64,000 nt of DNA from Ruminiclostridium papyrosolvens DSM 2782. GTDB lineage: Bacteria; Bacillota; Clostridia; Acetivibrionales; DSM-1351. This document shows positions 7,904-27,633 of the stretch, one piece after another. Location: contig NZ_CP119677.1 of the NCBI RefSeq assembly GCF_029318685.1, positions 310,001 through 374,000 of the forward strand, in the 5' to 3' direction. How positions within the stretch are numbered: position 1 is the stretch's first letter; every line of letters starts with the position of its first letter. The notes beneath the pieces are model-generated. The model had not been told where the DNA came from and did no database searches. It saw only the letters and a program-made list of their open reading frames with translations. The translations under genes and the position numbers were made by a program.

Positions 7904-7982
7904 CATGTAATAATTTATACTATAAAATAATTAAAGATGTGATTATAGTTATAGAATGATTTTGTCAATTTATGGAGGAATT

Positions 7983-8432
7983 ATGATTGCAATTGGAAGT
8001 GACCATGCGGGATATCTGTTAAAAGCAGATATTATAAAGTTTTTGGAGAGCAAGGGACTTGAGGTAAAGGACTTTGGTACAAACTCACCGGATTCAGTTG
8101 ATTATCCTGATTATGGACGAGCTGTGGCAGAGGCTGTAGCCGGTAAAGAATGTGAAAAAGGTATTTTAATATGCGGTACCGGGATTGGCATTTCAATAGC
8201 TGCCAATAAGGTTCCGGGTGCAAGAGCTGCATTGTGTACCGACAGCTATATGGCAAAAATGTGCAAGCAGCACAATGATGCCAATATAATCGCTATAGGC
8301 GAAAGAGTTGTAGGACCGGGACTAGCTCTCGATATAATTGAAACATGGCTGGAAACAGAATTTCTTGGTGGAAGACACCAGAACAGGCTTGAAAAAATTT
8401 CAGACATTGAAAAAAAATATTTGACAAAGTGA
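7983..8432 (+). CDS. rpiB: Ribose 5-phosphate isomerase B
   Basis: Interconverts ribose 5-phosphate and ribulose 5-phosphate. The protein starts [13 protein letters not shown], with [16 protein letters not shown] holding the catalytic Cys and KQHNDANI holding a catalytic His, so it is a complete RpiB/LacAB-family enzyme of 149 aa. An upstream in-frame ATG at 7956 exists, but SD GGAGG (7974-7978) sets the start at 7983. It is followed 10 bp later by upp, so ribose 5-phosphate metabolism and nucleotide salvage appear to be co-transcribed. Confidence 0.95.
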
Positions 8433-9640: not shown

Positions 9641-9700
9641 GTTTGGATGGTATGTTTTTATGTGGCTTTGCCTAGGGTTGTAATACAAGAAGGTGTTTAA

Positions 9701-11989
9701 ATGTCGAGTGTATATGAGTATTTTATTTCTTTCACCCTTGCGTTTATAGTTGCTTTTTCAGCTACTCCTGCAGTAAAAAGCCTTGCTTTTAAATTAGGGG
9801 TTGTTGATGTTCCTAAGGACAGTCGAAGGATGCATAAGAGGCCAACTGCATTGTTGGGCGGTTTGGCTATAATTGCAGGATTTTTTGTTTCAATACTATT
9901 TAGTATAGTCAGCTCCAAACTATTAAAGGTAGAAACTGCGTTGGTTTTTGACAAGCGTTTTCTAGGCTTAATAGCAGGTAGCTTAATTATTGCAGTATTG
10001 GGTTTTATAGATGATAAATATGCATTAAGCGCACAACTCAAATTTCCTATCCAGATAGCGGCAGCTCTTATAGTTGCATTTACCGGTACTAGAATTGAAT
10101 TTGTAACTAATCCTTTTTCAGTCATTGGAATATCGACCTTTGGGCCATGGATTTCTTACCCGTTGACTGTGATATGGATAGTTGGTATTACAAACGCTAT
10201 TAATTTTATTGATGGATTGGACGGATTGGCGGCAGGAGTATCGTCAATTGCTTCCATGTCACTATTCTTTGTTTCTGTAATGAGGGGTGATCCCGATATT
10301 CGTACAGCAGTACTGGCTGCAATTCTTGCAGGGTCTGTTCTGGGTTTCTTGCCTTATAATTTTAATCCTGCAAAGATTTTTATGGGAGATACGGGAGCAA
10401 CATTTTTAGGATTTGTACTGGGAACCATATCTATTCAAGGTACATACAAGTCTTATACGGCCATAGCCATAGCCGTACCGTTGCTGGTTCTGGCACTGCC
10501 CTTGTTTGATACGCTTTTTGCCATTCTCAGAAGAGTTGCAAGCGGTAAATCACCAATGGCAGCGGACAGAGGGCATTTGCACCACAGGCTTGTTGATATG
10601 GGGCTTACCCAGAAACAATCAGTTTTGGTTATATATGTTGCAAGTGCGGCACTGGGGTTATGTGCGGTAGTACTTGACTATAAAGGGCCCGTTAGTGCCA
10701 TTATATTGGTAATAGCGGTAGCTATATTCATAGTAGGCGGATCAATGTATATGAGTGAAGTGAACAGTGCAAGTAGGGCAAAAGAGGTTCACTACCTGTA
10801 CAACCCGTCAAGAATGTCTATAATAGGAGGTAGAAAGTTGGACAGACTAAAGGTAATGACAATATTCGGTACAAGACCCGATGCCGTTAAAATGGCACCT
10901 CTTGTAAAGGAACTGGAAAGGTGCGATAAGATTGATTCCATTGTGTGCGTAACAGCTCAGCATAGAGAAATGCTTGATCAGGTATTGAAAATGTTTGAGA
11001 TTACGCCTCAGCACGATTTGAATATAATGCAGAGCAGACAAACCTTAACAGGCATTACGACAAGGGCTCTTGAAGGCCTTGAAAAGGTTATGGAGCAGGA
11101 AAACCCTGATATAGTACTTGTTCACGGTGATACTACGACATGCTTTGTAGGAAGCCTTGCAGCTTTTTACAAGCAGATAGCTGTGGGACATGTAGAAGCA
11201 GGATTAAGAACTTTTGATAAGTATTCTCCATATCCGGAAGAAATGAATAGAAAACTTACCGGATCAATGGCAGATATTCACCTTGCACCAACTCAAACCA
11301 ACAGGGAAAATCTTTTAAGAGAAGGTGTAAGTCAGGATGCAATATATGTTACAGGTAATACTGTAAATGATGCATTAAAAACAACTGTAAAAGAAGATTA
11401 TACCTTCCAGTGTGAAGAACTCAGAGGGATAGACTTTAAAAATAAAAGAATCATTGCTGTTACTGCCCATAGAAGAGAAAATCTTGGGGAACCACTTCAC
11501 AATATCTGTCGTGCACTTTCTTCAATTGTTGATAAATATGACGATGTTGAACTGGTTTATACAGTGCACTTAAACCCTGTTGTGCAGGAAACGGCCAAGG
11601 AGATTCTTGGAGGAAAAGAAAGAGTTCACTTGATTCCTCCACTGGATGTTCAGGATATGCATAATCTTATGGCCAGATCATACATGATAATGACAGATTC
11701 CGGCGGAATACAGGAAGAGGCGCCGACATTGGGCAAGCCGGTTCTTGTATTGAGAAAAGAAACTGAAAGGCCCGAAGCTGTTAAAGCAGGTACAGTAAGA
11801 CTTGCCGGAACAGTTGAAAGCGAGATAATAGAACATGCAACAAAGCTTCTTGAAGACAAGGAAGATTATGACACAATGGCAAAGGCTGTAAACCCATACG
11901 GTGACGGACATGCTTCCGAGAGAATTGTCAAAGTACTTCTGTATCACTTCGGGTTAACAGATGAAATACCTCAGGAGTTTAGTGTTTGA
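9701..11989 (+). CDS. tagO-mnaA: Fused TagO/WecA-type GlcNAc-1-P transferase and UDP-GlcNAc 2-epimerase
   Basis: One uninterrupted 762-aa frame joins two enzymes. Residues 1 to about 370 form a polytopic membrane transferase that loads GlcNAc-1-P onto undecaprenyl phosphate. They show RRMHKRPTALLGGLA, DDKYALSAQLKF, NAINFIDGLDGLAAG, FMGDTGATFLGF and the final GHLHHRL His motif. Residues about 380-762 are a non-hydrolysing UDP-GlcNAc 2-epimerase making UDP-ManNAc. They show MTIFGTRPDAVKMAPL, AGLRTFDKYSPYPEEM, TAHRRENLGEPL and SGGIQEEAPTLGKPV. Both reactions begin wall polymer (teichoic-acid-like) synthesis. At the junction lies GGAGG (10826-10830) and, 7 nt on, an in-frame TTG (10838), so a free epimerase may also be made. 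The position just before the atp cluster matches mnaA in B. subtilis. Confidence 0.93.
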   Translation: MSSVYEYFISFTLAFIVAFSATPAVKSLAFKLGVVDVPKDSRRMHKRPTALLGGLAIIAGFFVSILFSIVSSKLLKVETALVFDKRFLGLIAGSLIIAVLGFIDDKYALSAQLKFPIQIAAALIVAFTGTRIEFVTNPFSVIGISTFGPWISYPLTVIWIVGITNAINFIDGLDGLAAGVSSIASMSLFFVSVMRGDPDIRTAVLAAILAGSVLGFLPYNFNPAKIFMGDTGATFLGFVLGTISIQGTYKSYTAIAIAVPLLVLALPLFDTLFAILRRVASGKSPMAADRGHLHHRLVDMGLTQKQSVLVIYVASAALGLCAVVLDYKGPVSAIILVIAVAIFIVGGSMYMSEVNSASRAKEVHYLYNPSRMSIIGGRKLDRLKVMTIFGTRPDAVKMAPLVKELERCDKIDSIVCVTAQHREMLDQVLKMFEITPQHDLNIMQSRQTLTGITTRALEGLEKVMEQENPDIVLVHGDTTTCFVGSLAAFYKQIAVGHVEAGLRTFDKYSPYPEEMNRKLTGSMADIHLAPTQTNRENLLREGVSQDAIYVTGNTVNDALKTTVKEDYTFQCEELRGIDFKNKRIIAVTAHRRENLGEPLHNICRALSSIVDKYDDVELVYTVHLNPVVQETAKEILGGKERVHLIPPLDVQDMHNLMARSYMIMTDSGGIQEEAPTLGKPVLVLRKETERPEAVKAGTVRLAGTVESEIIEHATKLLEDKEDYDTMAKAVNPYGDGHASERIVKVLLYHFGLTDEIPQEFSV
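10826..10840 (+). promoter_or_regulatory. Internal ribosome binding site and TTG start at the fusion junction
   Basis: AGGAGG, 7 nt, TTG, in frame with the fusion gene. The TTG would start a protein MDRLKVMTIFGTRPD, exactly the usual N terminus of a stand-alone epimerase. Confidence 0.6.
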
Positions 11990-12020: not shown

Positions 12021-12052
12021 AAAGGGGATGTTATGGACAACATCCCCTTTTT
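12021..12052. terminator. Bidirectional terminator between tagO-mnaA and motB
   Basis: AAAGGGGATGTT (12021-12032) pairs perfectly with AACATCCCCTTT (12039-12050). The 6-nt loop and A/T flanks make it work on both strands between convergent genes. Confidence 0.88.
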
Positions 12053-12070: not shown

Positions 12071-12847
12071 CTATTTGGCTGTTGAGCCTTCTTTATCTGT
12101 GTCGGCTTCACCCTTACTGGATGAATCCCTAAGTATTACAATATCAACTCTTCTGTTCTTTGCTCTGTTAATATCCGTAGTATTCGGAACTAATGGTGAA
12201 TATTCACCGTATGGTACAGGAGCAATCATCTTTGGATTAATACCGCCCTTATCAACCAGAAGCTTCAAAACATTTATTGCTCTTGCTGCAGACAATTCCC
12301 AGTTTGACGGATATAAGGCACTTTTCATTGGGATATTATCAGTATGTCCTTCCACACGTATGTGTTTGTTTGGAATCTTACTCAGAATATCCTTTCCTAT
12401 TTTTATTACCGTATCTTGATCATTTGGTTCTATTATAGCACTTCCGCTTTTAAACAGTATTTTCTCATTTATAGTAACAACTATACCACGCTCCTGCATG
12501 GTTACTGATACGTTCCCTTTTAATCCTTCAGAATCCACAAGACCGCTTATTTCCTCTTGCAATGCCTCCATCTGTTGATCCTCAATCTTTGAAGGTATTA
12601 CGGGAGACGGCATGGTAGCCGGAAAATCAATTAAAGAATTTCCCGAACTTCCACCTTGAACTACAGACGGCCGTTCTCCATTACCAAAGGCAGAGCTCAG
12701 TGATTGTGAGAGTTGCTGGAACTTTTCTGTGTTAACCTGACTCATGGAATACAATATTATAAAGAGTATTAGCAACAAGTTCATCAGGTCGGCATATGTT
12801 AAAAGCCAACGCTCAGCATTATCCTTGATAATTTTTTCCTTTGCCAT
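12071..12847 (-). CDS. motB: Flagellar motor stator protein MotB
   Basis: Stator subunit that anchors the motor to peptidoglycan and lines the ion channel. A single N-terminal membrane helix begins after a short cytoplasmic tail and contains the essential ion-carrying Asp (about residue 20) in YADLMNLLLILFIILYSMS. The C-terminal OmpA-like peptidoglycan-binding domain shows VEGHTDNIPM and NRAKNRRVDIVI. The 258-aa length is normal. It starts 2 bp after the motA stop, so the two are translationally close. The ion type (H+ or Na+) cannot be decided here. Flagellar genes are otherwise absent from the window. Confidence 0.94.
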   Translation of the reverse strand: MAKEKIIKDNAERWLLTYADLMNLLLILFIILYSMSQVNTEKFQQLSQSLSSAFGNGERPSVVQGGSSGNSLIDFPATMPSPVIPSKIEDQQMEALQEEISGLVDSEGLKGNVSVTMQERGIVVTINEKILFKSGSAIIEPNDQDTVIKIGKDILSKIPNKHIRVEGHTDNIPMKSALYPSNWELSAARAINVLKLLVDKGGINPKMIAPVPYGEYSPLVPNTTDINRAKNRRVDIVILRDSSSKGEADTDKEGSTAK

Positions 12848-12849
12848 GC

Positions 12850-13650
12850 TTACGCTTCAGCTCCTTCTTCCGCAGTAGCTACTGATTTATTTTTAGCACC
12901 GTTTAACTTCTCCATAAGGTTAAGGTTGAGTTTTTCCTTGATAATACGTGGATTTTCTCCTGCCTGTATGGATAAGAGACCTTCTATTATAATTTCGTTA
13001 ATCATTGTTTCACGTGCCGCTTTAGCCTTTATTTTTGTACCGAAGGGCAGCCATACAAGGTTAGCGAAGGCAACACCGTACATGGTTGCAATAAAGGCAC
13101 TGGATATCTTAGGCCCAAGTGCATTGGAATCCGACAAATCCTTAAGTATACTAATCATACCCATAACCGTTCCGCAAACTCCCATGGCCGGCCAGGTTCC
13201 ACCCATGGCTTCAAACATCTTTGCACCTGACTCATATATCTCTTCCTGCAGTTCGGTTTCTCTTGCAAGTATGTCCTTTATTACTTCTGTTTCTATACCG
13301 TCAACAACCAGAGCCAGGCCTTTTCTTATAAGGTCATTCTTATTTGTTTGGGCATCCTGCTCAAGACTGAGAAGTCCATCTTTTCTGGCCTTCTCAGATA
13401 AATCTGCCAACTCATTAATTATATCTATTTCGTTATATTTCTTTTGAATAAATAACATGCTCAGTGTAGAAAGCATTTTCTTAACTTCTGATAAAGGAAA
13501 TGCAACCAGTGTCGCACCAAAACCTCCGATAAAAACAATCAGAAACGGAGCTACCTTGAAAAGAGCGCCCAATTGGCCTCCTTCTTCCAAATAACCTGCT
13601 AAAACCCCGCCAAGACCCAGTACCAAACCTACAATGGTTGTAATATCCAT
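12850..13650 (-). CDS. motA: Flagellar motor stator protein MotA
   Basis: Four-helix stator subunit that couples ion flow through MotA/MotB to torque on FliG. It has the N-terminal hydrophobic pair (ITTIVGLVLGLGGVLAGY, then FIGGFGATLVAFP), a cytoplasmic loop, and the conserved GTVMGMISILKDL with the channel Pro/Gly region and the last helix. The frame is open to 13725, but ATG at 13648-13650 with AGGAG 10 nt upstream gives MDITTIVGLV, the usual start (266 aa). It is transcribed away from the atp cluster, from a 250-bp divergent intergenic region. Confidence 0.94.
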   Translation of the reverse strand: MDITTIVGLVLGLGGVLAGYLEEGGQLGALFKVAPFLIVFIGGFGATLVAFPLSEVKKMLSTLSMLFIQKKYNEIDIINELADLSEKARKDGLLSLEQDAQTNKNDLIRKGLALVVDGIETEVIKDILARETELQEEIYESGAKMFEAMGGTWPAMGVCGTVMGMISILKDLSDSNALGPKISSAFIATMYGVAFANLVWLPFGTKIKAKAARETMINEIIIEGLLSIQAGENPRIIKEKLNLNLMEKLNGAKNKSVATAEEGAEA

Positions 13651-13715
13651 AGAATGACCACTCCTGAATTTTTTGAATTTCTTTTGTGCATCTTTACTAA
13701 ATTCACTAACTCTAT

Positions 13716-13742
13716 AATGGTACATTTCGTCAAAGTACCATT
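13716..13742. repeat. Inverted repeat in the motA leader
   Basis: AATGGTAC (13716-13723) and GTACCATT (13735-13742) form perfect 8-bp arms around 11 nt, 66-92 bp upstream of motA. It could be an operator or an mRNA leader hairpin. Confidence 0.45.
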
Positions 13743-21088: not shown

Positions 21089-24000
21089 ATGAAATCTAAG
21101 TTCAGAGTTCAAAGTATTTTAGTTGCAGCAGCTTTATTTTTTTCGACTACAAATGTAGCATTAGCAGATGGGATATCACCAAAGCCTGATGTGGCAAATA
21201 TCACAGTTACAAATAATGCTGGCATGGCAGATACTGTTAAAGTAACTTCATTAGCAGTAGGTGATGTAGTAAGGGTTTACAGCCCCACGACTCAGATAGG
21301 TACTGCAACTGTAATGACAGGGAAGTCAGAAGCTATTGTAAGTATTCCTCAGATAGGTACAGATTCAGGTGTTATATATGTATCTGTAACTAATATCAGT
21401 AGTTTAGAGAGTGATAAGGTAGAAAAAGCATACATAGCGGAAGCAACAAGTACTGATCCTGTAGCAGATAATATTACGGTAACAAATAACGTAACAGGAA
21501 AATCAGATACAGCAAAGGTAACCGGACTTGAGGCAGGAGATGTAATAAAGGTATACGAGGATGATACAGTAACTACAACATTGGGAACAGCAACAGTTGC
21601 AGCAACAGCAACAGAAGCTACCGTTACAATCAGACAGCTGGGAGTAGAAGAAGGAAAAGTATATGTAACAGTGACATCACCGGGTAAGAAAGAAAGTACA
21701 AGAGTAGAAAAGGCATACGATGCAGAAGAAGTAACAGAGGCATTAAAAGCTGATGCGATAACAGTAACAAATAACGCAGGAAAAGCAGATACAGTAGCTG
21801 TAACCGGACTTACAGCAGGAGACATAGTAAAGGTATACAAAGACGGAACAGCTACTACAGCAGCGGGAACAGCAACAGTAGGAACAGGAAAAACAGAAGC
21901 TTTAGTTAGCATAACCCAATTAGGTACAGAAGCTGGAAAGGTATATGTAACTTTGACAAGTGCAGGTAAACTGGAAAGCACAAGAACAGAAGTAGCATAT
22001 ACAGAAGAAGCAACAAGTACTGCACCTGTAGCGGATAATATTACTGTAACAAACAACGTAACAGGAAAATCAGATACAGTAAAGGTAACCGGACTTGAGG
22101 CAGGAGATGTAGTAAAGGTATACAAGGACGATACAGTAACTGCAACATTGGGAACAGCAACAGTTGCAGCAACAGCAACAGAAGCTACCGTTACAATCAG
22201 ACAGCTGGGCGTAGAAGAAGGAAAAGTATATGTAACAGTGACATCACCGGGTAAGAAAGAAAGTACAAGAGTAGAAAAGGCATACGATGCAGAAGAAGTA
22301 ACAGAGGCATTAAAAGCTGATGCGGTAACAGTAACAAATAACGCAGGAAAAGCAGATACAGTAGCTGTAACCGGACTTACAGCAGGAGACATAGTAAAGG
22401 TATACAAGGACGGAACAGCTACTACAGCAGCGGGAACAGCAACAGTAGGAACAGGAAAAACAGAAGCTTTAGTTAGTATAACCCAATTAGGCACAGAAGC
22501 TGGAAAGGTATATGTAACTTTGACAAGTGCAGGTAAACTGGAAAGCACAAGAACAGAAGTAGCATATACAGAAGAAGCAACAAGTACTGCACCTGTAGCG
22601 GATAATATTACTGCAACAAACAACGTAACAGGAAAATCAGATACAGTAAAGGTAACCGGACTTGAGGCAGGAGATGTAGTAAAGGTATACAAGGACGATA
22701 CAGTAACTGCAACATTGGGAACAGCAACAGTTGCAGCAACAGCAACAGAAGCTACCGTTATAATCAGACAGCTGGGAGTGGAAGAAGGAAAAGTATATGT
22801 AACAGTGACATCACCGGGTAAGAAAGAAAGTACAAGAGTAGAAAAGGCATACGATGCAGAAGAAGTAACAGAGGCATTAAAAGCTGATGCGATAACAGTA
22901 ACAAATAACGCAGGAAAAGCAGATACAGTAGCTGTAACCGGACTTACAACAGGAGACATAGTAAAGGTATACAAGGACGGAACAGCTACTACAGCAGCGG
23001 GAACAGCAACAGTAGGAACAGGAAAAACAGAAGCTTTAGTTAGTATAACCCAATTAGGCACAGAAGCTGGAAAGGTATATGTAACTTTGACAAGTGCAGG
23101 TAAACTGGAAAGCACAAGAACAGAAGTAGCATATACAGAAGAAGCAACAAGTACTGCACCTGTAGCGGATAATATTACTGCAACAAACAACGTAACAGGA
23201 AAATCAGATACAGTAAAGGTAACCGGACTTGAGGCAGGAGATGTAGTAAAGGTATACAAGGACGATACAGTAACTGCAACATTGGGAACAGCAACAGTTG
23301 CAGCAACAGCAACAGAAGCTACCGTTACAATCAGACAGCTGGGAGTGGAAGAAGGAAAAGTATATGTAACAGTGACATCACCGGGTAAGAAAGAAAGTAC
23401 AAGAGTAGAAAAGGCATACGATGCAGAAGAAGTAACAGAGGCATTAAAAGCTGATGCGGTAACAGTAACAAATAACGCAGGAAAAGCAGATACAGTAGCT
23501 GTAACCGGACTTACAGCAGGAGACATAGTAAAGGTATACAAAGACGGAACAGCTACTACAGCAGCGGGAACAGCAACAGTAGGAACAGGAAAAACAGAAG
23601 CTTTAGTTAGCATAACTCAATTAGGTACAGAAGCCGGAAAGGTATATGTAACTGTAACAAGTGCAGGTAAACTGGAAAGCACAAGAACAGAAGTAGCATA
23701 TACAGAAGAAGCAACAAGTACTGCACCTGTAGCGGATAATATTACTGTAACAAACAACGTAACAGGAAAATCAGATACAGTAAAGGTAACCGGACTTGAG
23801 GCAGGAGATGTAGTAAAGGTATACAAGGACGATACAGTAACTGCAACATTGGGAACAGCAACAGTTGCAGCAACAGCAACAGAAGCTACCGTTACAATCA
23901 GACAGCTGGGCGTAGAAGAAGGAAAAGTATATGTAACAGTGACATCACCGGGTAAGAAAGAAAGTACAAGAGTAGAAAAGGCATACGATGCAGAAGAAGT

Positions 24001-25126
24001 AACAGAGGCATTAAAAGCTGATGCGGTAACAGTAACAAATAACGCAGGAAAAGCAGATACAGTAGCTGTAACCGGACTTACAGCAGGAGACATAGTAAAG
24101 GTATACAAAGACGGAACAGCTACTACAGCAGCGGGAACAGCAACAGTAGGAACAGGAAAAACAGAAGCTTTAGTTAGCATAACTCAATTAGGTACAGAAG
24201 CCGGAAAGGTATATGTAACTGTAACAAGTGCAGGTAAACTGGAAAGCACAAGAACAGAAGTAGCATATACAGAAGAAGCAACAAGTACTGCACCTGTAGC
24301 GGATAATATTACTGCAACAAACAACGTAACAGGAAAATCAGATACAGTAAAGGTAACCGGACTTGAGGCAGGAGATGTAGTAAAGGTATACAAGGACGAT
24401 ACAGTAACTGCAACATTGGGAACAGCAACAGTTGCAGCAACAGCAACAGAAGCTACCGTTACAATCAGACAGCTGGGAGTGGAAGAAGGAAAAGTATATG
24501 TAACAGTAACATCCTCAGGTAAGAAAGAAAGTACAAGAGTAGAAAAGGCATACGATGCAGAAGAAGTAACAGAGGCATTAAAAGCTGATGCGATAACAGT
24601 AACAAATAACGCAGGAAAATCAGATACAGTAGCTGTAACCGGACTTACAGCAGGAGACATAGTAAAGGTATACAAGGACGAAACAGCTACTACAGCAGCG
24701 GGAACAGCAACAGTAGCAACAGGAAAGACAGAAGCTTTAGTTAGCATAACTCAATTAGGTACAGAAGCAGGAAAGGTATATGTAACTGTAACAAGTGCGG
24801 GCAAGCTGGAAAGCACAAGAACAGAAGTAGCATATGCAGCTGAAGAGGTAACTGCTGATCCTAATGCGGATAAAGTTTTGGCCATTAATAATACCGGAAA
24901 TGATTTGGTTCTTGTATATGGTTTAACAGCAGGAGATGTAGTAACTATCTATGATGCAGCAGAAGCCGGAAAAGCAATTGGTACTTCAACAGTAGCAGCT
25001 GCACAGTCACAGGTTGTAATTACAATTTCTCAACTTGGACAGGCAGGCGGAACTTTCTACTTTACAGTTACTAACTCTGGTAAGCGTGAAAGTAAAAGAA
25101 TAGCAGTTACATTTACTGCTGAGTAA
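21089..25126 (+). CDS. Large secreted surface protein of tandem beta-sandwich modules
   Basis: A 1345-aa protein with a clear signal peptide (KSKFRVQSILVAAALFF, cleavage near ALA-DG). The rest is 14 modules of about 94 residues. Each reads (V/I)TVTNN..GK.DTV.VTGL.AGD.VKVYKD and ends VYVTVTS.GK.EST; I take them as Ig-like beta sandwiches of unnamed family. Twelve modules alternate between two kinds (A with NNVTGKSDT, B with NNAGKADT), forming six near-identical AB pairs; the first and last modules are diverged. There is no SLH domain, sortase signal or C-terminal anchor, so it may associate with partners or be released. SD AAGGAGG precedes the ATG. It is preceded by a sigma-D-like promoter and followed by a strong terminator, so it is probably monocistronic. 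A structural or adhesive filament is a guess. Confidence 0.85.
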   Translation: MKSKFRVQSILVAAALFFSTTNVALADGISPKPDVANITVTNNAGMADTVKVTSLAVGDVVRVYSPTTQIGTATVMTGKSEAIVSIPQIGTDSGVIYVSVTNISSLESDKVEKAYIAEATSTDPVADNITVTNNVTGKSDTAKVTGLEAGDVIKVYEDDTVTTTLGTATVAATATEATVTIRQLGVEEGKVYVTVTSPGKKESTRVEKAYDAEEVTEALKADAITVTNNAGKADTVAVTGLTAGDIVKVYKDGTATTAAGTATVGTGKTEALVSITQLGTEAGKVYVTLTSAGKLESTRTEVAYTEEATSTAPVADNITVTNNVTGKSDTVKVTGLEAGDVVKVYKDDTVTATLGTATVAATATEATVTIRQLGVEEGKVYVTVTSPGKKESTRVEKAYDAEEVTEALKADAVTVTNNAGKADTVAVTGLTAGDIVKVYKDGTATTAAGTATVGTGKTEALVSITQLGTEAGKVYVTLTSAGKLESTRTEVAYTEEATSTAPVADNITATNNVTGKSDTVKVTGLEAGDVVKVYKDDTVTATLGTATVAATATEATVIIRQLGVEEGKVYVTVTSPGKKESTRVEKAYDAEEVTEALKADAITVTNNAGKADTVAVTGLTTGDIVKVYKDGTATTAAGTATVGTGKTEALVSITQLGTEAGKVYVTLTSAGKLESTRTEVAYTEEATSTAPVADNITATNNVTGKSDTVKVTGLEAGDVVKVYKDDTVTATLGTATVAATATEATVTIRQLGVEEGKVYVTVTSPGKKESTRVEKAYDAEEVTEALKADAVTVTNNAGKADTVAVTGLTAGDIVKVYKDGTATTAAGTATVGTGKTEALVSITQLGTEAGKVYVTVTSAGKLESTRTEVAYTEEATSTAPVADNITVTNNVTGKSDTVKVTGLEAGDVVKVYKDDTVTATLGTATVAATATEATVTIRQLGVEEGKVYVTVTSPGKKESTRVEKAYDAEEVTEALKADAVTVTNNAGKADTVAVTGLTAGDIVKVYKDGTATTAAGTATVGTGKTEALVSITQLGTEAGKVYVTVTSAGKLESTRTEVAYTEEATSTAPVADNITATNNVTGKSDTVKVTGLEAGDVVKVYKDDTVTATLGTATVAATATEATVTIRQLGVEEGKVYVTVTSSGKKESTRVEKAYDAEEVTEALKADAITVTNNAGKSDTVAVTGLTAGDIVKVYKDETATTAAGTATVATGKTEALVSITQLGTEAGKVYVTVTSAGKLESTRTEVAYAAEEVTADPNADKVLAINNTGNDLVLVYGLTAGDVVTIYDAAEAGKAIGTSTVAAAQSQVVITISQLGQAGGTFYFTVTNSGKRESKRIAVTFTAE
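21461..24862 (+). repeat. Six tandem 567-bp repeat units
   Basis: The same boundary word recurs at 21461, 22028, 22595, 23162, 23729 and 24296, each exactly 567 bp apart (189 codons, one A plus one B module). A diverged seventh register point is at 24863. Units differ by only a few bases by eye. Confidence 0.95.
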
Positions 25127-25250: not shown

Positions 25251-25284
25251 GGTATAATAAAAGAAATTTTTGGGGGTATATGCT

Positions 25285-27633
25285 TTGATTTCTAACAGGG
25301 GAAAAAAATATCATAAATTTAAACACATTTCTAAGTTAGCAATAATGCTTGCAGCAGCTATTTTGATGCAAAGCCTAGTTGTACTTAATACAGCAGCCGC
25401 TACTGTAAAATCAAATATCACTGCTTTAGTACATAATGTAAATGTGGTTACCCTCAATTGGAATGACTATTTAACTAATGAGATAAATTATTATTTGGAG
25501 CGAAGTGTTGACGGAGGGATATTTTCAACGGTCTCTTACGCTGCTGCAAATCTTACAACTTTCACAGACAGCACCGTTCAACCCGGGCATATTTATACTT
25601 ACAGGGTAAAAGTTATGGATTCCACTTATACAACATATGTGTATGCTGATGAAATTTCAATTCGCACAGATGAAGTTGCAAGACCGGATTCTTTGACGCC
25701 TACAACGGTTTCATCTAATCAGATAGATTTAAAATGGACTTATCCTGCGGGTAAGATAAGCAATACTATAATAGAGCGAAGAACGGAAGGCTCTACCTCC
25801 TGGACGGAAGTATCCAGAGTTCCGGCAGGTCAGAATGCATACAGTGACAAGGCAATAGCGGCGGGTATAAAGTATTATTATAAAGTCAGGTCGTATTCAA
25901 CGGAGTATATAAAATCCTCTGCTTATCCTGATGAATATGACGGAATCAGTGCGGTTTCAATGTTGCCCAGACCGTCAAACCTGTCGGGATTTGCTCTTTC
26001 AGGGTATAAAATACAGCTAAAATGGCAGGATGTATCATTTGAAACGGCATATATTATTGAAAGAAGAGCATCCAACGAAGGTGCTTTCACTGAAGTTGCA
26101 GTATTGCCACAGAATACCACCAGCTATATTGATAACGTTGCACATGAAAATTCCATATACAGCTACAGGATTAAGGCATTAACAGGTGTTACCAGTTCCG
26201 AGTATTCAGATGTTCTGAATGTGGCCAGTACATATTTAAAGCCTCCTTCATGGCTCACGGCTGTCAGTGTAGATGGTAAAAAAATCAGTTTGTCATGGCA
26301 GGATTTGACTACCAATGAAACAGGCTTTGAGATATGGAGAAAAGCTCCTGCTGAAACAGAGTATACATTGTATGATACAATGGGTAGAAATGCAAACAGT
26401 TATATTGATTTGAATGTATCTCCACAAAAAAACTATTCCTATAAGGTAAGGGCAAAAATTAATGATAATGAAGTATATTCTGATTTCTCCAATGAATCCG
26501 GTGCTTTAACAACGCCTCTGAGTCCTCCTGCAAACTTGTCATTTAACATTATAAGTAAAACAGAGGTTGAGCTTACTTGGGATGATACCAGCAGTATGGA
26601 GGCAGGCTTTATAGTAGAGAAAAAGATTGGTTTGCTGTCACAGTGGTATCAGATCTCACAGCTTGAGCCTAATGTAACAAAATATAATGATAAATGGATA
26701 AGCAGTACGGAACCTACTTTTTACAGAATTAAGGCCTTTGACAGGTCAACGGCTGTCAGCTACAGCAATGAGGTACAGTTGTCATTAGATGCTCCTGAAG
26801 TCCCCAGCAATTTGCAAACTTCCGTTCTATCAACTAATGACGTGAAGCTATCATGGAAGGACAATTCTTCTACCGAAGAAGGATTTATAATTGAGGCAAA
26901 GCAGTTGTATCTTTTCAGAGAAATAGGCAGAGTTGATTCAAATGTGACAACTTTTATATATCACGATGCTATACCCGGAAGAACAATGACATACAGAATC
27001 AGAGCTGTAAAGGGTTTGGTTCAGAGCAATCCTTCAAATGAGGTTGCCACAGTTACTTTGGTAAATAATACATACAGTGATTTGGGGTCTGTAAGCTGGG
27101 CGGCAGAGGCAATCAATAACCTTGCAAGCAGAAATGTATTCGAAGACAAAAGTAATAAATTTAACCCAAAACAGTCTATTAGCAGAGGGGAATACTGTGC
27201 CATGCTCGTTAGAAGCCTTGGCATGGAAAAAGCAGTGGCAGGAAGATTTGCCGATGTTACCGTAAAACATAAATATTATAAGGAAATTATGTTATCAGAG
27301 TACTTTGGTATAATAAGCAAGGATAAAAATAACAAGATTTACCCGGATAAGCTTATAACAAGAGAACAGGCCACGGTAATGCTTGCTTTGGCTCTGAAAA
27401 TAAAGGGAACTCCATTACCTCAAAAGGACAGCAGTACTTTGAAGGAGTTTGCAGATTTTAAGTTGATTTCATATTCATCTTCCAGAAATATAGCCGCTGC
27501 ATGCGGAGTAGGTATTATTTCTGGAAGAATAATTAAAGGGCGGGTTTACTTGCAGCCCTCAAATAATGTAACAAGGGCAGAAGCTGCATTAATGGTATAT
27601 AAGGGATTAATTTATAATCAAGGTAATCAATAA
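25285..27633 (+). CDS. Fibronectin type III repeat protein with C-terminal SLH domains
   Basis: Secreted cell-wall-bound protein of 782 aa. A hydrophobic signal segment (LAIMLAAAILMQSLVVLNTAAA) follows a basic start. Six FN3-like domains of about 90 aa follow, recognisable by IxLxW...GF.IERK....Y.D....Y.YRVRA (for example KISLSWQDLTTNETGFEI). The last 190 residues hold three SLH repeats (YSDLGSVSWAAEAINNL, FADVTVKHKYYKEIM, then NNVTRAEAALMVYKGL) expected to bind pyruvylated wall polymer. The frame extends to TTG 25270, but GGGGG at 25272-25276 fits TTG 25285. It is followed after 20 bp by another SLH-bearing gene, so the two are probably co-transcribed from the sigma-D-like promoter. Confidence 0.88.
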   Translation: MISNRGKKYHKFKHISKLAIMLAAAILMQSLVVLNTAAATVKSNITALVHNVNVVTLNWNDYLTNEINYYLERSVDGGIFSTVSYAAANLTTFTDSTVQPGHIYTYRVKVMDSTYTTYVYADEISIRTDEVARPDSLTPTTVSSNQIDLKWTYPAGKISNTIIERRTEGSTSWTEVSRVPAGQNAYSDKAIAAGIKYYYKVRSYSTEYIKSSAYPDEYDGISAVSMLPRPSNLSGFALSGYKIQLKWQDVSFETAYIIERRASNEGAFTEVAVLPQNTTSYIDNVAHENSIYSYRIKALTGVTSSEYSDVLNVASTYLKPPSWLTAVSVDGKKISLSWQDLTTNETGFEIWRKAPAETEYTLYDTMGRNANSYIDLNVSPQKNYSYKVRAKINDNEVYSDFSNESGALTTPLSPPANLSFNIISKTEVELTWDDTSSMEAGFIVEKKIGLLSQWYQISQLEPNVTKYNDKWISSTEPTFYRIKAFDRSTAVSYSNEVQLSLDAPEVPSNLQTSVLSTNDVKLSWKDNSSTEEGFIIEAKQLYLFREIGRVDSNVTTFIYHDAIPGRTMTYRIRAVKGLVQSNPSNEVATVTLVNNTYSDLGSVSWAAEAINNLASRNVFEDKSNKFNPKQSISRGEYCAMLVRSLGMEKAVAGRFADVTVKHKYYKEIMLSEYFGIISKDKNNKIYPDKLITREQATVMLALALKIKGTPLPQKDSSTLKEFADFKLISYSSSRNIAAACGVGIISGRIIKGRVYLQPSNNVTRAEAALMVYKGLIYNQGNQ

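What the first reader, a model, noticed from the sequence alone, without database searches (positions are those of the whole stretch)
9701..11989. TagO-MnaA fusion with a built-in second translation start
Two consecutive enzymes of wall-polymer priming are fused, yet an SD and TTG sit exactly at the junction, in frame. The cell could make both a membrane-tethered fusion and free epimerase from one gene. It may also be an evolutionary relic of two adjacent genes that lost a stop codon.
Basis: partly seen in the sequence, partly recalled or inferred. Interest (0 to 1): 0.55.

Follow-up and report, generated by a model that had tools for sequence, protein, structure and literature searches.

The report
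Fused wall-sugar gene with inner start
In a group of cellulose-digesting clostridia, two neighbouring cell-wall sugar enzymes have become one long gene, yet a ribosome-binding site and start codon for the second enzyme are preserved inside it, so the gene probably makes both a membrane-bound double enzyme and a free copy of its second half.

Summary
Confirmed. Window 9701-11989 is one 762-codon frame: a TagO/WecA-like phosphosugar transferase joined to a UDP-GlcNAc 2-epimerase (MnaA/WecB). AGGAGG (10825-10830) lies 7 nt before an in-frame TTG (10838-10840) at the domain junction.

The window is Ruminiclostridium. All 11 held genomes of the genus and one relative (G032) are fused, and all 12 keep GGAGG plus TTG or GTG at the site where 33 of 34 unfused relatives in the order have their best-scoring mnaA start. 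Synonymous sites are otherwise almost randomised between the deep branches. Of ten SD+start sites inside 15 reference genes, only this one is kept in all 11 genus genomes. Two more fused relatives (G051, G052) keep ATG there with a weaker SD. Two other fused groups (13 genomes of one family, four MAG loci) have no start codon there, so fusion itself does not require the signal.

Best reading: ribosomes start at both sites, giving a membrane-tethered TagO-MnaA (762 aa) and free epimerase (383 aa). Loss of a stop between two genes is the likely origin; "mere relic" is disfavoured. No protein data were available, so two products remain inferred. In-frame internal starts are a known kind; this looks like a new member.

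The parts
9701..11989 (+). fused tagO-mnaA reading frame, 762 codons plus stop
9690..9695 (+). AAGGTG, probable ribosome-binding site of the full-length frame (5 nt before ATG 9701)
   Evidence: read; not tested further
9701..10837 (+). TagO/WecA-like phosphosugar transferase half plus linker (codons 1-379)
   Evidence: PF00953 at aa 88-247; predicted helices to about residue 360
10766..10819 (+). predicted disordered linker, residues 356-373
   Evidence: pLDDT below 50 for residues 356-373
10825..10830 (+). internal Shine-Dalgarno AGGAGG
   Evidence: GGAGG kept in 12 of 12 clade A genomes
10838..10840 (+). internal in-frame start codon TTG (codon 380)
   Evidence: TTG in 11 of 11 genus genomes, GTG in G032
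10838..11989 (+). internal frame for a free MnaA/WecB epimerase, 383 aa
   Evidence: TIGR00236 at aa 4-370 of this product, 520.6 bits; aligns to the solved epimerase 3beo_A from residue 2
12021..12050 (+). terminator-like hairpin after the gene
   Evidence: consensus match only

Best explanation
The gene is a derived fusion of tagO and mnaA in which the old start of mnaA still works. Ribosomes that start at ATG 9701 read through and make a 762-aa membrane protein with the epimerase hung from the last TagO helix by a flexible linker. Other ribosomes bind AGGAGG at 10825 and start at TTG 10838, making a free 383-aa epimerase (about 43 kDa). The tethered form can hold UDP-ManNAc production beside the GlcNAc-lipid step, and the free form supplies soluble enzyme in extra amount. 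Shown here: the fusion, the signal, its position at the ancestral start, and its conservation. Inferred: that ribosomes use it, the ratio of the two products, and the benefit.
For: GGAGG + NTG at codon 380 in 12 of 12 clade A genomes. Only 1 of 10 SD+NTG sites in 15 reference genes is kept in all 11 genus genomes, and it is this one; the runner-up, 7 of 11, is rpiB codon 10, which looks like rpiB's true start and so acts as a positive control. In background columns where all 11 genomes keep the amino acid, all-GGA is 5 of 137 Gly columns, all-TTG 1 of 136 Leu columns, all-AGR 45 of 73 Arg columns. Four-fold sites are 34-39% identical between the window and the six distant genus genomes, 32% for G032; the window's TTG leucines are kept as TTG in only 2-7 of 14-15 places. 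The G032 linker shares 1 of 15 residues before GGRK, but GGRK itself is shared and the start codon is GTG instead of TTG, so the residue changes and start ability stays. SD pairing in clade A (median -10.7) is stronger than in the 34 split relatives (median -7.4; 6 of 34 reach -9.3). 33 of 34 split genes have their best start at the same site. TTG yields a complete epimerase whose first strand is predicted at 383-389.
Against: No direct evidence of a second protein. TTG is a weak start codon. Given the amino acids IGGRKL, the SD and NTG arise by chance in about 5-11% of codon draws per genome (8 genomes drawn), so a protein-level constraint on GGRKL would explain part of the pattern. The 12 genomes are related, and the Mann-Whitney test ignores that. 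RNA accessibility of the site is inconclusive: percentile 48-98 within the gene for clade A, 51-97 for the fused groups without the signal. Family f63 manages with a fusion that has no start at that site and, in 12 of 13 genomes, no other epimerase above the Pfam cut-off, so free epimerase is not a general necessity.
Confidence: 0.72

Rival explanations
1. Relic: a stop codon was lost between tagO and mnaA, only the fusion is made, and the old SD and start simply have not yet decayed.
For: 34 of 37 adjacent pairs examined in the order outside the genus are split, with short spacers or a 4-nt overlap in 7. In G049 one in-frame TAA, 15 nt before the mnaA start, is all that separates the two frames.
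Against: Synonymous sites are close to randomised (32-39% identity at four-fold sites), yet GGA and NTG are kept in 12 of 12. SD strength is higher, not lower, than in split relatives. Two other fused groups show no start at this position (0 of 13 and 0 of 4).
Confidence: 0.09
2. Protein-level constraint: the linker motif IGGRKL is needed in the fusion (turn, basic patch at the membrane, or protease site), and the SD-like codons follow from it.
For: GGRKL is invariant in 10 of 11 genus genomes (G009 has GGRRL). Given the residues, SD + NTG appears in 5-11% of synonymous draws. Family f63 also has Gly-rich linker ends in several members.
Against: Residues alone do not fix GGA in 12 of 12 or TTG in 11 of 11 (background 5 of 137 and 1 of 136). 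G032 has GTG (Val), a different residue that is also a start codon. Fused groups B, C and D lack GGRK followed by a start.
Confidence: 0.09
3. The SD-like run slows ribosomes so that TagO inserts in the membrane before the epimerase is made; no internal initiation.
For: It lies directly between a membrane domain and a soluble domain.
Against: Pausing would not need a start codon at correct spacing, yet NTG is kept with a change of residue. The fused groups C and D have no conserved SD at the junction.
Confidence: 0.04
4. A promoter inside the gene makes a short mRNA for the epimerase alone.
For: TGTACA-16-TATAAT at 10797-10824.
Against: 5 promoter-like sites found against 7.1 expected. TATAAT itself is present only in the 5 close genomes G000, G002, G005, G006, G007 (sequences). 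It ends where the SD begins, so a transcript from it would probably lack the SD (inference).
Confidence: 0.03

Closest known systems
In-frame internal translation of cas11 within cas8/cas10d of type I CRISPR systems
   Same: A second start inside a longer frame yields a separate C-terminal protein; PMC11899642 (passages seen) shows it for Haloferax cas8b by tagging and start-codon mutation, and cites the bacterial type I-D, I-B and I-C cases.
   Different: Different genes and function. Here a perfect SD and TTG sit at the join of two whole enzymes that are separate genes in most relatives; here nothing is shown experimentally.
N-terminal proteoform pairs mapped by Ribo-RET in Salmonella
   Same: Annotated and internal in-frame starts used in one gene (PMC11005335, abstract and outline seen).
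   Different: A general census in another organism; I did not see whether any entry is a fusion junction.
Separate tagO and mnaA genes of the same order (for example G023, whose contig matches Acetivibrio straminisolvens in length)
   Same: Same order of genes, same enzyme families, mnaA start at the homologous site with an SD.
   Different: Split by a stop; mnaA is probably translated by its own start or by coupling.
Other fused tagO-mnaA genes: G051/G052, family f63, MAG loci L024, L026, L028, L088
   Same: The same two domains in one frame.
   Different: G051/G052 keep ATG at the site but a weaker SD; f63 and the four MAG loci have no start codon at the site.
CheA long/short forms in enteric bacteria (recalled, no call)
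   Same: One gene, two in-frame starts, full-length and shortened enzyme.
   Different: Not a fusion junction.

Membership tests
Non-hydrolysing UDP-GlcNAc 2-epimerase (MnaA/WecB) | TIGR00236 equivalog score above cut-off | tested here: met
   517.8 bits, cut-off 210.15
Non-hydrolysing UDP-GlcNAc 2-epimerase (MnaA/WecB) | full-length match to solved epimerases from the internal start | tested here: met
   P0003 residues 2-372 align to 3beo_A 7-374; residues 2-382 to 1o6c_A 2-378
Non-hydrolysing UDP-GlcNAc 2-epimerase (MnaA/WecB) | epimerase activity | not testable with these tools
   needs an assay
TagO/WecA-type polyprenyl-phosphate HexNAc-1-phosphate transferase | PF00953 above cut-off | tested here: met
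   150.3 bits, cut-off 27
TagO/WecA-type polyprenyl-phosphate HexNAc-1-phosphate transferase | conserved Asp-Asp and His motifs of the superfamily (roles recalled) | tested here: met
   D104, D105, H292, H294, H295 invariant in 21 fused proteins
TagO/WecA-type polyprenyl-phosphate HexNAc-1-phosphate transferase | enterobacterial WecA model (TIGR02380) above cut-off | tested here: not met
   152.8 bits, cut-off 326.05; so it is filed as TagO-like, not as WecA
Genes with in-frame internal initiation (two products) | SD and start codon at suitable spacing inside a longer frame | tested here: met
   AGGAGG, 7 nt, TTG
Genes with in-frame internal initiation (two products) | signal conserved beyond what the protein needs | tested here: met
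   protein-level contribution not excluded
Genes with in-frame internal initiation (two products) | both proteins observed | not testable with these tools
   no proteomics or Ribo-seq held
Genes with in-frame internal initiation (two products) | change of the internal start removes the short product only | not testable with these tools
   bench experiment

The most novel reading that the evidence does not exclude
Selection has kept an internal start for tens of thousands of generations or more after a gene fusion because the cell needs two localisations of one enzyme in a set ratio: epimerase held at TagO, and free epimerase. Fused lineages that no longer need the free form (f63 and the L024 group) lost the start, so gene fusion with a retained internal start is a stable evolutionary state in its own right and can be recognised by NTG kept while its residue changes (M, L, V).
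Probability: 0.35. Interest if true: 0.65.

Novelty: new member of a known kind. Interest (0 to 1): 0.5.

Why it matters
If true, one gene gives a membrane-tethered and a free form of an early wall-polymer enzyme, and annotation pipelines that record one 762-aa protein miss the second product. The set of relatives is a natural experiment: unfused genes, fused genes that keep the start (clade A, and with a weaker SD G051/G052), and fused genes without it (f63 and four MAG loci). It offers a general test for hidden internal starts at gene-fusion junctions: a start codon that survives while its residue and the surrounding linker change.

Tried and rejected
Internal promoter: fewer promoter-like sites than in shuffles; TATAAT not kept outside the five closest genomes. 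RNA accessibility: inconclusive, no weight given. Counting fusion events: the quick tree of 68 rows needs 4 changes, at least 3 forced by starred branches, but the AU test does not reject one clade for the Ruminiclostridium + G032 and G051 + G052 groups (p 0.652, held tree 13.4 log units better) or for f63 + the four MAG loci (p 0.382). So I say two to four events, not four.

SD-like NTG sites in the groups without the ancestral start: 1 of 13 f63 genomes (L190, conserved Met at codon 6, -9.3) and 2 of 4 MAG loci (L026 at -10 and -43, L088 at -12 codons) reach -8.5. They are at different places, so I read them as chance, but an internal start elsewhere in those four loci is not excluded.

Limits of the conservation scan: G008's stretch ends early, so its genes downstream of the fusion are absent; columns needed all 11 genomes; the atpD-side gene g18971 was matched to a paralogue (25-26% identity) in G001, G009 and G010. 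Insertions relative to the reference were dropped.

Rows dropped: of 47 order genomes outside the genus, 38 stretches were fetched, 37 had an adjacent pair. Left out: G014, G015, G016, G018, G021, G022 (not adjacent), G017 and G020 (TagO half only), G041 (no match), and G057 was fetched but has no TagO on the stretch. The tree used 68 chosen rows, 20 of them picked from outside the order set.

Papers: 10 searches. None of those naming TagO with MnaA or the epimerase, Ruminiclostridium cellulolyticum with the epimerase, or guessed locus tags Ccel_0256-0261 returned a paper; the library lacks most subscription journals.

Full report
What is there. The window holds one frame of 762 codons at 9701-11989. 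Its first half is a TagO/WecA-like transferase (PF00953, aa 88-247) and its second half a non-hydrolysing UDP-GlcNAc 2-epimerase (PF02350, aa 403-746; TIGR00236 wecB, aa 383-749, well above cut-off). AGGAGG at 10825-10830 is followed after 7 nt by TTG at 10838-10840, which is codon 380 in the same frame. A protein begun there is 383 aa long, aligns to solved epimerases from its second residue, and is recognised as complete wecB. A structure prediction (mean pLDDT 82.1, pTM 0.53, lower confidence at 55-67 over most of residues 251-350) puts a poorly ordered linker at 356-373 and the first strand of the epimerase at 383-389, so the TTG lies between the two domains.

Where it comes from. The best named match is Ruminiclostridium papyrosolvens C7 (98%, L015). 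The window's genome is one contig of 5,027,861 bases with this as its only Epimerase_2 gene. Among 11 genus genomes, 6 have just this one above the Pfam cut-off and 5 have one or two more. All 11 have one WecG/TagA-type gene (PF03808), which fits use of ManNAc in a linkage unit; that use is inferred.

How common the fusion is. 11 of 11 genus genomes are fused. In the order (58 genomes), outside the genus, 37 adjacent pairs were examined: 3 are fused (G032, G051, G052) and 34 split. In an even draw of the class, 391 genomes, 12 have one unbroken frame over both halves at E <= 1e-190: 8 of the genus, G051 and three of family f63. In the phylum draw, 398 genomes, only the window's own. All 13 genomes of f63 are fused. 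Four more fused loci came from the scan of genome contigs (L024, L026, L028, L088). On a tree of 68 rows the fused genes fall in four groups, but tests allow as few as two.

The signal. In the genus plus G032, 12 of 12 have GGAGG and an NTG codon at the same place: TTG in 11, GTG in G032. In 33 of 34 split relatives of the order the best-scoring start of mnaA is at the homologous codon (8 TTG, 8 GTG, 17 ATG). So the internal site is the old start of mnaA. G051 and G052 have ATG there with weaker pairing, -7.4 and -6.6, near the split median of -7.4. In f63 0 of 13, and in the four MAG loci 0 of 4, have a start codon at that place.

Is the conservation more than the protein needs? Between the window and the six distant genus genomes, 34-39% of four-fold sites are identical, 32% with G032. 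The window's leucine TTG codons stay TTG in 2 to 7 of 14-15 places in those genomes. In columns where all 11 genomes keep Gly, 5 of 137 are all GGA; where all keep Leu, 1 of 136 is all TTG; where all keep Arg, 45 of 73 are all AGA/AGG (junction codons left out). Treated as independent these multiply to about 2 in 10,000, a rough figure. In a scan of 4,694 columns in 15 genes, 10 reference sites have an in-frame NTG with strong SD pairing. Only the junction is kept in 11 of 11; rpiB codon 10, which is probably rpiB's true start (GGAGG before ATG 7983), is kept in 7 of 11; one site is kept in 5 of 10, all close relatives; the rest in 4 or fewer. Against this, given the residues IGGRKL the pattern arises in 5-11% of synonymous draws per genome, so selection on the residues could explain part. 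G032 speaks against that: its linker shares 1 of 15 residues before GGRK and has Val for Leu, yet the SD and a start codon remain. SD pairing is stronger in the 12 fused genes (median -10.7) than in the 34 split genes (median -7.4) (p 4e-6 without correction for kinship), opposite to decay. A start inside a translated frame may need a stronger SD than one coupled to a stop just upstream; that is inference.

Mechanism. Shown: fusion, signal, position, conservation. Inferred: two-site initiation, giving tethered and free epimerase. Probability about 0.72. The tethered form may feed UDP-ManNAc at the membrane, the free form may set the total epimerase activity. Family f63 shows that a fusion can do without a start at that site and, in 12 of 13 genomes, without another epimerase above cut-off, so the free form is a lineage-specific need if it is one.

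Known or new. In-frame internal starts are known; the closest in logic is Cas11 made from inside cas8 or cas10d (PMC11899642, passages) and N-terminal proteoform pairs in Salmonella (PMC11005335, abstract and outline). Searches pairing TagO with MnaA or the epimerase found no paper in the held library. I file it as a new member of a known kind.

Noticed in passing
window 21089-25126 (+): A 1345-aa frame built on about 11.4 copies of a 282-base tandem repeat (21479-24718). Long minus-strand frames (754, 187, 187 aa) mirror the repeat and are probably by-products. Pfam hits in it are scattered and look spurious; an SLH + fn3 protein follows at 25270-27633.
   Followed up: partly
window 7956-8432 (+): The mechanical rpiB-like frame begins too early; ATG 7983 with GGAGG before it looks like the true start and served as a positive control.
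   Followed up: yes
L144 (G049): tagO and mnaA are in one frame, separated by a single TAA 15 nt before the mnaA start: one change from fusion.
   Followed up: no
L130-L136 (G034-G040, seven genomes of family f7 order members): tagO stop and mnaA ATG overlap by 4 nt, a layout typical of translational coupling.
   Followed up: no
L009 (G008), also L060: The fused frame differs after residue 756 and runs to 790 aa; possibly a frameshift in this MAG near the contig end.
   Followed up: no
G014, G015, G016, G018, G021, G022: In these six order genomes the tagO and mnaA matches lie at different places or on different contigs, so the adjacent pair is broken up.
   Followed up: no
window 12071-13725 (-): Two minus-strand genes lie between the fused gene and the atp operon; by their sequence they look like MotB/MotA (recognised by eye, not searched).
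   Followed up: no
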